DNA of 64,000 nucleotides from positions 349,665-413,664 of the forward strand of contig LODT01000034.1 of NCBI GenBank assembly GCA_001606155.1, written 5' to 3'. The translations under genes were made by a program, and so were the position numbers. This DNA is from Tieghemostelium lacteum (Eukaryota; Evosea; Eumycetozoa; Dictyosteliales; Raperosteliaceae). Positions 4,220-22,188 of the stretch are shown here, in pieces. The notes beneath the pieces are model-generated. The model searched no databases. It saw nothing but the letters and a program-made list of their open reading frames with translations, and was not told the DNA's origin. The stretch's first letter is position 1. Every line of letters begins with the position of its first letter.

Positions 4220-5191
4220 ATGGAGGGCCCAACCAACTATGCAGTTAATTTTAATGAAATAAAAGAATCACATCAAAGAATTAAGGATTTTATACATTTG
4301 ACACCAGTTTTGAGTAACTCAACCATTAATGAACTCTCTGGAAAACAGTTATATTTCAAATGTGAAAATTTTCAAAAATCATGTTCATTTAAATTTAGAG
4401 GTGCCTCTAATGCCATCTTAAAACTGAGTGAAGAGGAATTAAAGAGTGGAGTTGTTACACATTCATCAGGTAACCATGGTCAAGGATTGGCAAAAGCAGC
4501 AAAAATGAAGAATACAAAGGCATACATAGTAGTACCTTCGAACGCACCTCAAATTAAAATCAATGCCATCAGAGACTATGGTGCTGAAGTGGTATTATGT
4601 GAACCTACTTTAGTAGCAAGAGAGACAAACTGTCAGAATCTAATTGATAAACATGGATGTACTTTAGTTCACCCATTTGATAATGAATCTATCATTCAAG
4701 GACAAGGAACTGTTGCTTTGGAACTTTTAGAACAGGTACCTGATTTAGACTGTATTGTATGCCCAGTTGGAGGTGGTGGCTTACTTTCTGGAATTTGTAT
4801 TGCCGCAAAAGCTATAAAACCAAATATAAAAGTTATTGCAGCTGAACCTGAAGGTGCAGATGATGCTTTTAGATCAAAACAAGCTGGTTCAGTTCAAAAA
4901 CACAGTGAAAACAAACCAAATACTATTGCAGATGGTTTATTAACTACAGTAGGTTCTAGAAATTGGCCAATTATTCGTGATCTTTGTGATGAAATTATTA
5001 CAGTTTCTGATCAAGAAATCAAAGAGGCAATGAGATTGATTTGGGAAAGAATGAAAATTATAGTTGAACCATCATCAGCTACTGCATTGGCTATTACACT
5101 TAAACAACAATTCAAAGACAAAACAGATCTAAAGAAAGTTGGTATTGTAATATCAGGTGGTAATGTTGATTTGGATAAATGGAAATGGTAA
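4220..5191 (+). CDS. Serine racemase / serine-threonine dehydratase family
   Basis: A single-exon gene of 323 residues, the usual length for eukaryotic serine racemase. It is a fold-type II PLP enzyme. The lysine that should bind PLP lies in 'SFKFRGASNA' (about residue 53), followed by 'SSGNHGQGLAKAA' for substrate carboxylate and ring contacts, and the Gly-rich phosphate loop 'GGGGLLSG' near residue 190. A C-terminal 'VISGGNVD' segment matches the Ser-containing PLP-nitrogen contact of this family. It interconverts L- and D-serine and also eliminates water to pyruvate. Threonine dehydratase is the main alternative, but there is no C-terminal ACT regulatory domain. ATG 4220 follows a T-rich leader. 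Confidence 0.92.
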   Translation: MEGPTNYAVNFNEIKESHQRIKDFIHLTPVLSNSTINELSGKQLYFKCENFQKSCSFKFRGASNAILKLSEEELKSGVVTHSSGNHGQGLAKAAKMKNTKAYIVVPSNAPQIKINAIRDYGAEVVLCEPTLVARETNCQNLIDKHGCTLVHPFDNESIIQGQGTVALELLEQVPDLDCIVCPVGGGGLLSGICIAAKAIKPNIKVIAAEPEGADDAFRSKQAGSVQKHSENKPNTIADGLLTTVGSRNWPIIRDLCDEIITVSDQEIKEAMRLIWERMKIIVEPSSATALAITLKQQFKDKTDLKKVGIVISGGNVDLDKWKW

Positions 5192-8763: not shown

Positions 8764-10802
8764 ATGAATAGCAATAATAATAATAATACACAACCAACAA
8801 GTTTTACCGAGATTGATATACCAAAGGAACATTGGGACAGTAAATCAGTTCTAAAATGGTGTAAATTCATTGAAATACCTGAAAAGGATTTATTAATTTT
8901 TAGAGATACTGAGTTAGATGGATTTAGTTTAGTATACTTTAATAAATCTGGAGATTTAATAAAACAATTAAGGGATTTTGGTGTATCAAATTCTTCTTCA
9001 ATTAGAATTTTTGCAAAATTCAATCCACCAGAAACACAAGGTAAACTAAACATCTATCATATTCTAAACACCTTTTGTTCATTTTTACTAATATATTTTT
9101 TACATAAAATTCAATACAATTAAACACCTATTGACATTCAACTACACAATAGGAATGCAAGGTATGTAGATTGCTTGAATAATGTAAAGTATTTAGGTGT
9201 TGAGACTAGATATTAACTTAGTAATAATTAGCTGATAAACGTTGGACATTTGTAGACCCAGTAAATCAAGGAAACTATTATCACATTGATCCAAAACATT
9301 TACAATTGGATATTTTATATAGTAAAGCAATCGAAGGTGGGAGTTGGTTAGTTCAGGGGTCATATAGAAGTGGCAAAACAACCCATATGATGGCACTTGA
9401 AAAACAAATTCAAAAAGAATTTCATCCAATTATTTTAACTTTGAACCCTTATATTGACATTTGGAAAAATATATCAGGTGTAATCTCAATAGATTTCCCT
9501 GATTGTGGGCCTATTAAAGATGTCCAGGAATTTAAAGACAAGTTTCTCGCCAATAAGAAGTATTTTGGAGGGAGGAAAGTAGTTTTATTATTTGATGAGT
9601 TCCAATGTTTACTTGATACCGAAGAGTACTTTGAATTCTGCTCAGTAATGAAATATATAATGGATAACAGAGCCAAATATAACATGCAAGCCATTTTTGG
9701 TTTCGGGACATTTAGAACTATTAAATTGGCAAAATTAGATAGCAGAATTAGTTCATTTCATATGCCAGAAACAACTATAATAGAACCACTTCCAGAGAAA
9801 TTGGTATATAAACTACTCAATGAATGGGCAAATACTATAGGAATGATAATTCCACCGTTAATTCTGAAAGAAATATATATAACTATTGGTGGGTATGCAG
9901 GCCTTCTTGGACTGGTGGGATTAGCTCTCCAGAGTTCAACTAGTGTAACTGAACTTAAGTCGAGCCATAATAAAAATATGACAATGAACCAGTGGTTGTT
10001 TATTCGTGAACAGACTTCTAGTAATTTACAAAATCAACCTCAATTCCAGAAATTAGCTGAAATAATTTCAGGTGACGAGAAAATTTCAAAACTTGCAGAA
10101 TATATTTTATATCGTCCAGAACCATTCTTTTGCTCACCAGAAAATATTGAATATATGATGACTCTATCAGATTATGGGCTATTAAGACAAGATAGTAAAA
10201 AAAAAGAATTTTATCTTTCCTCTCCATTAGTCAGAGAGTTCTTATTGGCCAAATACTACAGAAATGTTGGTACGGTTAACTTTCCTGATCATTGGGAAGA
10301 AAATATTATTCCATTCTTAAAAGAAATAGTAAGACACCTCCGTTCCAGAGAATTTCCCCTCCCAGAAACCCAAAACTTCACCACCAAGTTTACTTCAGAA
10401 TACACTTTCCAAGCTGAAATTTTTGCTATTATTAAAAATGGAATCAATGGATTATATAATTCTCCATATGTTATTTCAATAGAAGCTAAAACAAGTGGTA
10501 TGGGACACAGAAGAGCAGATATTTTGGTTAGAAATGGAAAAAGAATTATATTTGAATTGAAATCTGGTTTGAAATGGGAGAATGCTGATTTAGCTCAACA
10601 ATCTGTAATACAATTGGATAGATATGCAGAGGATTTTCAAGTTCATACAGCCATTATATTAAATTTAGTACCCAATGGATCAAAATTTTCTCATATAGAA
10701 TTTATCCATAATCAAGTTAAATATTTTATATTCGAGGTAATTTTTGATGGAAACACATTCACACTCAACACAAAAGAAAATATTGAAGCCACTTTGAAAT
10801 AA
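8764..10802 (+). CDS. SAM domain - P-loop NTPase - PD-(D/E)XK nuclease-fold protein
   Basis: Exons 8764..9040, 9153..9161 (a possible 9-nt microexon) and 9232..10802 give 618 residues. Residues about 18-90 form a SAM domain ('VLKWCKFIEIPEKDLL', 'LDGFSLVYF'). A P-loop ATPase follows, with Walker A 'GSYRSGKTT' and Walker B 'VVLLFDEFQCLL', and a winged-helix-like middle region. The C-terminal domain has the nuclease-fold pattern E (in 'FQAEIFAII'), D (in 'HRRADILV') and ExK ('IIFELKSG'). The NTPase plus restriction-endonuclease pairing is that of the Crinkler/AAA-ATPase-like group, whose members act on nucleic acids in the nucleus. The SAM domain sits where those proteins have a ubiquitin-like header. 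Splicing without the microexon also keeps frame. Function is inferred. Confidence 0.8.
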
Positions 10803-20115: not shown

Positions 20116-22188
20116 TTATAATATAATTTGATCCACTTTTCCGTCTTGGTAGTGAATTTTATAGGTTTTAAAATCAGTTGAATATGTGATGATACATAAG
20201 TTGGGATCAGCAATATTAGGTGGATTATTCTGGTACAACATTTCAGATGAAAAGTCAATGATTATCCAATCTTTAATCATTGTGTCCAACAAGGGAACAT
20301 ATATACCAATATATGTAGCATTTTGACCTGATCTAGATGTAGTATTGGTTTTGGTTGTCTTGAATCTATTCAAGTGTTCATCCGTACCTTTTCCTTCTGA
20401 TAAGAGCTCTATTCCCCAATTATAAGGTGGTTCAACATAGAAATCAATCTTTCCATCACTACCGTTTCTTCCTCCAGCATTAGGGACTATAATGGGACCT
20501 AAAATATTTGAAAATGCACAATATAATTCCATTTGCCAAACACTCTCAAGGGATTGAACATTTTCATTGGGTAATGAAGCCCTAGCGGAAAATTTGGATG
20601 AAATAACATAAGGTCTAAAGTACTTAATAGCACAAAAAATGAGTTGTTTTAAACCAATTAAACCCTTTTCAATTTTCTCATCAGATGGCCAATTTTTACC
20701 ATACCTCTTTACCAAATAACATCGTCTAAAAAGTGGAGAGGGGAAAATGAAGTGACTATTTTGCTCTTCGCTCATGATTAAGTACCCATCTTTTATTAAA
20801 GATTCTAAGTCAGGGTTTCCGATATGGCTTGCTTTAATATAGCCATTTTCAGTCACAAGATCCAAAATTTTCAACTGGTTTTGAGAAAAGTTAACATCAT
20901 AACTAGGAGATCCCCTAGATTCAGCCAAATATTGAGAGTATTCACCAGACATTAGATAGTTAAATACCTTGGCAAAATCAACCTGTGATTTTATTTGTCC
21001 AGAAGGTGAAAATTTTTCCATAATACCATGAAGAGATCTATTGACAATACCAACATGTCCAATAGAGTTGGTCCATAAGAAATTGTAGATTTCTTTGGGT
21101 ATTTGGAAATATTGTTTTGAGAAAAAGTCCAAAAGTTGAGTGAATTCTTCATGATTAAAGAATAAAAAATTACTACCTAATACCTTGGTATCATTTAGTA
21201 CAAATGGTGTGTGAGCCTTTCCTTGCTTTTCTCCATATGAAGCTAAAATTAAAATGTGAATGTTTGTTGTTAGACATTTGAGAAAGGGCCAAAATTGGGA
21301 GTGATATTCAACATCATCAGATTTGTAAATCGCTTGAGCTTCATCAATTATTAGATAGACATGCTTTTTAGTGGATACTTTTAACCAGTCTCTAAAGGAC
21401 AAACCAGTATAAAGTGTCCACAAATCGTGAAATCCCTTATTGTGCCAACCAAATGATATTCTTCTAACATAGGATACTGGTTTTTGATCCTTATACTTTT
21501 CATTCAAATATATCTCCAATAATTGACCAACAGATGTTTTGCCAGTAAATGGTGGTGATCTAATAATAACTATTGGATTTTCTAACATTGTATTAAAAAT
21601 TTCCTCAACTAGTTTGTTTCTAGGAACTACCAGTTTATTTCCCCTTATACCCTCAAATTTGTTACCACCTTCATTCTGTAAATGAAAATATTCACTAGGA
21701 ATAGGTGTACCTCCAGGACTATAAGTTACTATTGTTAAAATCGAATTAATATCATCTAAAAAGTATACAAAAATCTACATACCTTGCTTTCCTTGGGGAA
21801 CTATTGTGGTTGAACAGGGGTTAAATTGATTTTAATTTTACAAAAAATATTAGTATATGAATAAAAGGCATTGTAATTAGTGGGTTGTTTTGTTTACAGT
21901 ACTTATAGTTGTTTTAATTTTAACTCTAAGTCGAATATAACTTTGTGTACCATCATCATAGCTGTTTACTAAAGTATTTAACTTTGTAATTGGAGATAAG
22001 GGATCGCTCTCTTTTTCTCTTGAAGTAGGTGTTTTAAAGACTTGAACTATAAACAATGAGTCTATAGGTTTACCCATAGTTTTGTTAATATATTCTCTGA
22101 CCTGTGAAATATTCTCTTTTTCTACCATGGTTAAACTATTTTCAGTGGAATCTTCTATCCAAACAGGAACACTTTTATCTGTATTCAT
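20116..22188 (-). CDS. Crinkler-type protein: ubiquitin-like header, P-loop NTPase, REase-fold C-terminus
   Basis: Exons 21898..22188, 21779..21800 (22 nt) and 20116..21755 (minus) give about 650 residues. The first 97 residues match the Crinkler header: 'VPVWIEDSTENS' followed by a ubiquitin-like strand order. The middle has Walker A 'SPPFTGKTS' and Walker B 'VYLIIDEAQ'. The C-terminal domain has the Crinkler nuclease pattern: E in 'VWQMELYCAF', D in 'DGKIDFYV' and E-x-K in 'WGIELLSEGKG'. In the wider family these proteins enter nuclei and act as DNA-targeting effectors or as intracellular conflict proteins. In a free-living amoeba the role is unknown. The microexon is inferred because joining exon 1 straight to exon 3 breaks the frame; a weak alternative donor (GTACTG) would avoid it. 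Confidence 0.82.

What the first reader, a model, noticed from the sequence alone, without database searches (positions are those of the whole stretch)
8764..10802. SAM domain in the header position of a P-loop NTPase/REase-fold protein
The gene has the NTPase plus PD-(D/E)XK core of Crinkler-type proteins, but its N-terminus is a SAM domain instead of the ubiquitin-like header seen in the second gene at 20.1-22.2 kb. This suggests an exchange of the adaptor domain: a self-association or signalling module (SAM polymers) coupled to an ATP-driven nuclease. Such a layout resembles prokaryotic and eukaryotic conflict systems, in which oligomerisation triggers nuclease activity. I do not know of a described system of this type in amoebae.
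Basis: partly seen in the sequence, partly recalled or inferred. Interest (0 to 1): 0.72.

Follow-up and report, generated by a model that had tools for sequence, protein, structure and literature searches.

The report
Amoeba nuclease with swappable SAM head
A slime-mould gene that joins a SAM-like interaction domain to an ATP-driven nuclease core is one of dozens in its genome that share exchangeable front and back parts joined at a common intron, a layout resembling Crinkler-type conflict proteins.

Summary
The gene is real: exons 8764-9040, 9153-9161 and 9232-10802, 618 aa. Its body is a P-loop ATPase plus PD-(D/E)XK nuclease with key residues intact, alignable end to end with headerless bacterial proteins (AAA_35, PDDEXK_9-like) of Poribacteria. 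The N-terminus is most likely a divergent SAM domain: Pfam finds nothing in this protein alone, but family profiles, SAM domains of the same genome and a second, clearer SAM header group support it. No usable structure model was obtained, and the weak one was not all-helical. The header is not a one-off: 41 matches (40 places) occur in the genome, and in the loci read it precedes six unlike body groups, while three body groups carry two or more header types. Between loci that differ in both parts, a 110-140 nt intron plus microexon is shared at about 80% identity, and homology starts and ends there. This supports header exchange by recombination at a conserved intron. Replacement changes run near the neutral ratio while long frames stay open, as in fast-evolving conflict genes. 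Best reading: an intracellular Crinkler-RHS-type ATP-dependent nuclease that its SAM header assembles or aims. Assembly, activity and defence role are inferred, not shown. New variant of a known kind.

The parts
8764..9040 (+). exon 1: SAM-like (SAM-1) header, about 92 aa; core W24..V..WC..I..IP..D..I......LDG..L......L...L.D.GV....S.RI
   Evidence: gene model; for the SAM assignment; for 41 matches E<0.01 in the genome
9041..9152 (+). intron 1, the conserved cassette shared across unlike headers and bodies
9153..9161 (+). microexon GAATGCAAG (probable)
9162..9231 (+). intron 2, starts GTATGTAGATT like other family members
9232..10802 (+). exon 3: P-loop NTPase plus PD-(D/E)XK body (P0001), stop included
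9357..9383 (+). P-loop GSYRSGKTT (P0001 residues 44-52)
   Evidence: invariant G49 K50 T51 T52 with four bacterial relatives
9579..9602 (+). Walker B VVLLFDEF (residues 118-125)
   Evidence: invariant D123 E124 F125
10398..10562 (+). PD-(D/E)XK motif stretch: E391 ... D431 ... E443-x-K445
   Evidence: invariant with bacterial relatives; D431 and E443 invariant in seven family bodies, K445 lost in the sister group
21783..21800 (-). 18-nt microexon of the second gene (probable), same context as in the first gene

Best explanation
The gene encodes an intracellular 618-aa Crinkler-RHS-type (CR) protein: a divergent SAM header, a short linker partly coded by a microexon, an AAA_35-like P-loop ATPase and a PD-(D/E)XK nuclease. 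It belongs to a large family in this dictyostelid genome in which header exons and body exons are exchanged by recombination at a conserved intron-microexon cassette. Shown from sequence: gene, body anatomy, header copies, mixed header/body pairs, homology limited to the cassette. Inferred: the SAM header assembles or targets the protein, ATP binding or hydrolysis gates the nuclease, and the nuclease cuts foreign or mobile nucleic acid inside the amoeba, so that header exchange re-aims one nuclease core to new triggers or places.
For: Body: four Poribacteria proteins (best tblastn covers residues 113-468, E 4e-7) align end to end and share P-loop, Walker B, E391, D431, E443, K445; three of the four were scanned and all three pass AAA_35's cut-off, two with sub-cut-off PDDEXK_9. 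Header: 41 matches E<0.01 in 40 places. SAM: hhalign against 14 SAM domains of the genome score 24.2 against a maximum of 13.6 in 60 column shuffles; a genome scan with SAM_Ste50p gives 10 hits, 7 at SAM-1 and 3 at SAM-2 headers, none over cut-off; L069-type headers match a canonical SAM at E 1e-5 among 14 sequences; L049, with 22.5 bits to PF00536 (cut-off 23), sits before the same intron. Exchange: between loci with different header and body, 76 of 87 pairs share the cassette (median 80.7%), and 1 of 76 extends over 30 nt into the header; same header with different body, 71 of 72 do. L070 and L073 share 561 nt at 88% starting at the intron but have different headers. Frames stay open although 13-20 stops would be expected in nine of the 12 body pairs.
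Against: Pfam finds no SAM in this protein; its own header has no BLAST match at E<=0.05 to the 14 SAMs. Without the two SAM-2 members the profile score is 19.9 against a shuffle maximum of 18.9 in 200, and against the SAM-2 pair alone 17.0, below the shuffle maximum of 20.8. The single-sequence AF2 model of the header, pLDDT 54, is mixed alpha/beta rather than all-helical. No test of expression, assembly, ATPase or nuclease activity. In a sister body group the catalytic lysine is lost. Replacement changes are mostly not below neutral, which also fits relaxed constraint.
Confidence: 0.6

Rival explanations
1. Selfish or transposon-derived family: the genes spread and recombine like retrotransposon hot-spot (RHS) genes and have no host function; the nuclease core acts in the spread or is a relic.
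For: Many copies and broken copies: 7 of 42 header matches have stops, C11, C23 and C42 copies of this body are broken. Retrotransposon-like frames lie downstream of the header in L061 and L052. dN/dS near the neutral value.
Against: Long frames (500-650 codons) stay open where 13-20 stops would be expected for nine of 12 body pairs, though pairs were picked for long frames; two group C pairs are clearly under purifying selection. No terminal repeats or mobile-element genes were looked for systematically at each copy.
Confidence: 0.25
2. Secreted effector: as in oomycetes, the header carries the protein out of the amoeba into prey, competitors or hosts.
For: The oomycete CRN header is said to serve secretion and translocation (PMC5289972, section 11).
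Against: The header starts with an Asn-rich stretch and shows no hydrophobic signal-like segment by eye; no signal-peptide program was on hand. A SAM domain is typically intracellular (general knowledge).
Confidence: 0.08
3. The header is not a SAM domain but another small fold, for instance one more divergent ubiquitin-like header like those of the sister genes.
For: Mixed alpha/beta elements in the weak AF2 model; short last segment before the Pro/Thr-rich linker where SAM domains have a long helix; shared Thr-rich junction with the other headers.
Against: Profile comparison with three other header groups is at background while that with SAMs is not; SAM_Ste50p scan and canonical SAM matches.
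Confidence: 0.2

Closest known systems
Crinkler-RHS-type (CR/CRN) proteins of oomycetes, fungi, trypanosomes and free-living eukaryotes (Zhang et al. 2016, known here through the review PMC5289972)
   Same: Header plus exchangeable C-terminal body; P-loop NTPase plus REase-fold nuclease as a common body; recombination at the header/body border; bodies of bacterial origin
   Different: SAM-like instead of the LFLAK/Ubl header; border lies in a conserved intron with a microexon; headers and several bodies of this genome match no Pfam family
Bacterial AAA_35 (PF14516) plus PDDEXK_9-like proteins of Poribacteria
   Same: End-to-end alignable body with identical Walker and nuclease residues
   Different: No header domain; about 21% identity
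SAM (sterile alpha motif) domain proteins
   Same: W..E.V..W...IGI .. I......DG..L .. L...LGV .. R pattern; profile similarity to SAM domains of the same genome
   Different: Below Pfam cut-offs; insertion before the fourth helix; short last helix
Prokaryotic and animal conflict systems with adaptor plus STAND/AAA NTPase plus effector
   Same: Adaptor, NTPase and nuclease in one chain; rapid exchange of parts
   Different: Recalled resemblance; no oligomerisation-triggered activity shown here

Membership tests
Crinkler-RHS-type (CR) protein | P-loop NTPase coupled to REase-fold nuclease as C-terminal body | tested here: met
   catalytic and Walker residues invariant with bacterial relatives
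Crinkler-RHS-type (CR) protein | modular N-terminal header exchanged between bodies | tested here: met
Crinkler-RHS-type (CR) protein | direct sequence relation of this body to described CRN bodies | not tested
   no CRN protein was at hand in the collections used; Zhang et al. 2016 not held
Crinkler (oomycete type, PF20147 header, LFLAK motif; name recalled) | Ubl/LFLAK header | tested here: not met
   Pfam finds 0 families in this header and 0 in the second gene's header
SAM domain | match over a curated SAM cut-off | tested here: not met
   no match over cut-off for the SAM-1 group
SAM domain | homology to accepted SAM domains by profile | tested here: met
   weakened when SAM-2 members are removed
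SAM domain | five-helix fold | tested here: inconclusive
   AF2 pLDDT 54, mixed elements
PD-(D/E)XK nuclease | D...(D/E)xK residues on an alpha-beta-beta-beta-alpha core | tested here: met
   residues; order of elements H389-409 E415-423 E427-434 E439-445 H453-477 in a low-confidence model, pLDDT 37

The most novel reading that the evidence does not exclude
The conserved intron-microexon cassette is a dedicated recombination hub that lets one amoeba genome assemble a combinatorial repertoire of ATP-driven nucleases, each with its own sensor or assembly header (SAM-1, SAM-2 and several others), a germline-diversified innate defence comparable in logic to exchange of domains in NLR or polymorphic-toxin families.
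Probability: 0.3. Interest if true: 0.85.

Novelty: new variant of a known kind. Interest (0 to 1): 0.6.

Why it matters
It shows, in a free-living social amoeba, header exchange in a Crinkler-like family caught at DNA level: unlike headers and unlike bodies joined at one intron. That gives a tractable, non-pathogenic organism in which the purpose of Crinkler-type proteins outside infection can be tested, and a candidate link between SAM-driven assembly and ATP-gated nucleases in eukaryotic conflict.

Tried and rejected
Pfam, NCBIfam, PADLOC, PHROGs and PDB searches of the slime-mould body alone gave no significant filing; the best were PADLOC LeoB E 3.1e-4 and PHROG 6891 'ATPase' E 0.0027, both partial and not used. 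PDB search with the header profile gave 3 hits, the top two SAM proteins (liprin-beta-1, 2dkz; that 2dkz is a SAM domain is recalled) at E 0.73 and 0.86, not significant. Viral contigs held no relatives of header or body. Both AF2 models were too weak (pLDDT 54 and 37), so no fold search was run. A first idea that the intron is more conserved than the exons was dropped: in 91 pairs of 14 loci the header exon averages 78% and the intron 75% identity, against 49% for 400 bp upstream. A first reading of positive selection from dN/dS (header values up to 2.7) was dropped after a neutral expectation from the intron spectrum: normalised ratios 0.43-1.31 for 12 body pairs and 0.50-2.17 for 12 header pairs; one body pair above neutral at p 0.04 uncorrected, two body and two header pairs below. 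Pairs were picked by me from long frames, so frame retention is biased upward. In one search unknown labels were counted as labels; one search repeats the count on the 20 loci with known header and body (dropped: L057, L063, L014, L074, L051), setting L073's body from its match to L070. An exact pattern of the cassette end with up to 3 mismatches found 0 matches in the window.

Full report
Where it lies. The window is G000:C29:349665-413664 of a 23.33-Mb, 43-contig genome. Codon and base make-up fit a dictyostelid; the size fits D. lacteum, now Tieghemostelium lacteum (54 contigs, 23.4 Mb in PMC4931340, passages seen). The species name is an inference.

The gene. ATG at 8764; donor GTAAAC at 9041; acceptor at 9231; stop ends at 10802. 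A 9-nt exon at 9153-9161 fits between two introns and gives 618 aa. Among 25 held family loci, 15 show a non-zero microexon in the same place and 14 of the 15 have a length that is a multiple of three (one, L067, has 14 nt; L069 has zero; nine showed no such pattern). The second family gene of the window (22188-20116, minus) shows the same microexon context. Splicing itself was not tested.

The body. The last exon (P0001) has a P-loop GSYRSGKTT and a Walker B VVLLFDEF, and near the C-terminus E391, D431 and E443-x-K445. Pfam, NCBIfam and PDB gave nothing significant for it alone. With an alignment of seven family bodies, a scan of bacterial genomes returned four loci out of 295 candidate stretches, all labelled Poribacteria, tblastn E 4e-7 to 2e-5, best match residues 113-468. 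These are headerless proteins of 530-558 aa that align end to end with P0001 at 21% identity, with all the residues above invariant. Three of the four were scanned: all three pass the AAA_35 cut-off, two match PDDEXK_9 below cut-off. The second AF2 job gave pLDDT 37, too low to use, though its elements H389-409, E415-423, E427-434, E439-445, H453-477 have the order expected for a PD-(D/E)XK core. In the sister group of bodies (L014, L015, L017, L018, L056) the ExK motif reads E-I-V, so the lysine is lost there.

The header. 42 matches at E<=10 and 41 at E<0.01 occur in the genome, in 40 places since two at C23 overlap; 7 of the 42 contain stops. Is it a SAM domain? For: of three PDB hits with the profile two are SAM proteins, not significant (one of them recalled as SAM); SAM_Ste50p matches 3 of 22 members, best E 0.0046, SAM_PNT 1 of 22; profile comparison with 14 SAM-like stretches of the genome, 12 of them over the Pfam cut-off, score 24.2, P 3e-4, maximum of 60 shuffles 13.6; comparison with the three other header groups at background; a genome scan with SAM_Ste50p gives 10 hits, 7 in SAM-1 and 3 in SAM-2 headers; headers of L069 and L070 match the canonical SAM of L036 at 35% over 54 aa, E 1e-5 among 14 sequences. 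A second header group, SAM-2 (8 places), has two members just under the PF00536 cut-off or weaker (22.5 and 19.2 bits); L049 of this group precedes the same intron and a body with a DIIISL..HIELKKG motif. Against: Pfam finds nothing in this header; PF00536 hits none of the SAM-1 places; DUF995 matches 3 of 22; none of the ten SAM_Ste50p hits passes the cut-off and they cover about the first half of the model; without L049 and L051 the score is 19.9 against a maximum of 18.9 in 200 shuffles, and with these two alone 17.0 against 20.8; this gene's own header has no match at E<=0.05; the AF2 model is mixed alpha/beta at pLDDT 54. I put the SAM reading at about 0.8.

Exchange of parts. Twenty regions with SAM-1 headers were fetched, half of the places. 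A cassette of the form GTAAACTAAACACCTATCACTAAT...CACAATAG, microexon, GTATGTAGATT follows the SAM-1 header in 15 of the 20 (not in L052, L053, L058, L062, L064). Frames behind the headers fall by BLASTP into six groups that follow SAM-1: A/B (this gene, L065, L056, L017), C (L053, L058, L068, L069, and the window's second gene), D (L054, L055, L059, L070), E (L060, L071), F (L066, L067) and L052. Some of these are short or broken. Three groups carry more than one header type: A/B (SAM-1; the header of L007 and L018; that of L015), C (SAM-1; the second gene's header), and the L070 body (SAM-1; the second gene's header type in L073). On 20 loci with known header and body, pairs that differ in both share a match at the cassette in 76 of 87 cases, median identity 80.7%; the match begins at the intron (median 12 nt inside it) and ends 112 nt past the donor; 1 of 76 runs more than 30 nt into the header. 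Pairs with the same header and different bodies: 72 of 85, upstream median 289 nt, 71 of 72 over 30 nt. Pairs are not independent. Clean examples: L070 and L073, 561 nt at 88% from 1 nt before the intron, different headers; L015 and L018, 881 nt at 86%, different headers. In L056 and L017 the match stops about half-way through the intron (52-56 nt), as a breakpoint inside the intron would give. A genome search with the cassette scored 40 of 79 candidates, all 80-98% identical over the matched stretch: 17 lie behind SAM-1 headers, 1 behind SAM-2, 1 behind the second gene's header type, 21 behind others or unread sequence, so more header types are likely.

Selection. For 12 body pairs the ratio of replacement to silent changes, divided by a neutral expectation from the introns, is 0.43-1.31; two pairs of group C are below neutral (p 0.0026 and 0.00093). 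For 12 header pairs it is 0.50-2.17, two below neutral. Expected stops under neutrality are 3.4-19.7 per pair and 13-20 for the nine pairs other than L053/L058, L060/L071 and the two half-length W1/L065 comparisons counted as one gene... in numbers: eight pairs lie between 13.4 and 19.7, four between 3.4 and 6.2. Frames were picked for length, so this is support, not proof, for function. For this gene and L065 the ratio is 0.96-0.97 and 10.9 stops would be expected in all over both lineages; this gene has none, L065 is broken. Proven positive selection is not claimed.

How it may work. Shown: anatomy, intact motifs, exchangeable headers. Inferred: ATP-bound assembly through NTPase and SAM, nuclease action on nucleic acid in the cell, header as aim or sensor. 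The review PMC5289972 (section 11 read) reports that in CR proteins the REase is thought to be the toxic part and NTPase its regulator, that bodies are of bacterial origin, and that headers vary; passages in PMC6131194 report dimer formation and nuclear location for one fungal member. Zhang et al. 2016 itself was not held.

Novelty. 'crinkler' with 'SAM domain' gives 0 papers in the held library, with 'exon shuffling' 2 and with 'dictyostel' 6 (listings seen, not opened). Crinkler-type proteins in free-living eukaryotes and recombination at the header border are in print. So this is a new variant: SAM-like header, intron cassette as joint, dozens of copies in an amoeba.

Noticed in passing
L061 (from about 1240 nt after the header at 4467) and L052 (about 2327 nt after the header): Retrotransposon-like frames (reverse-transcriptase/RNase H-like and integrase-end-like, recognised by eye) lie downstream of SAM-1 headers.
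   Followed up: no
C31:363871-364817 (L014, L062): A sister body with the intron cassette but no recognisable header in front, while an orphan SAM-1 header lies nearby on the other strand.
   Followed up: partly
C11:503715-505285, C23:445029-446398, C42:964918-965406: Broken copies of this body; of the three SAM-1 plus A-type copies seen only the window's is intact.
   Followed up: partly
C2:1329821, C31:408416, C19:409405, C40:48896, C24:18751, C34:221982, C33:612549, C2:343339: A second, clearer SAM header group (SAM-2) of eight places in the same kind of short exon.
   Followed up: partly
L014, L015, L017, L018, L056: Sister bodies have lost the catalytic lysine of the ExK motif (E-I-V-A-H), so they may be inactive or use another residue.
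   Followed up: no
window 20116-21774, minus strand: The second gene's C-terminus has a D-F-Y-V...W-G-I-E-L-L stretch that recalls fungal and oomycete Crinkler nucleases (from memory, not tested).
   Followed up: no
L075 and L076: In two Poribacteria records the headerless relative sits in the same place, between a similar upstream gene and a pyruvate-dehydrogenase-like gene (by eye), with no mobile element beside it in the frames listed.
   Followed up: no
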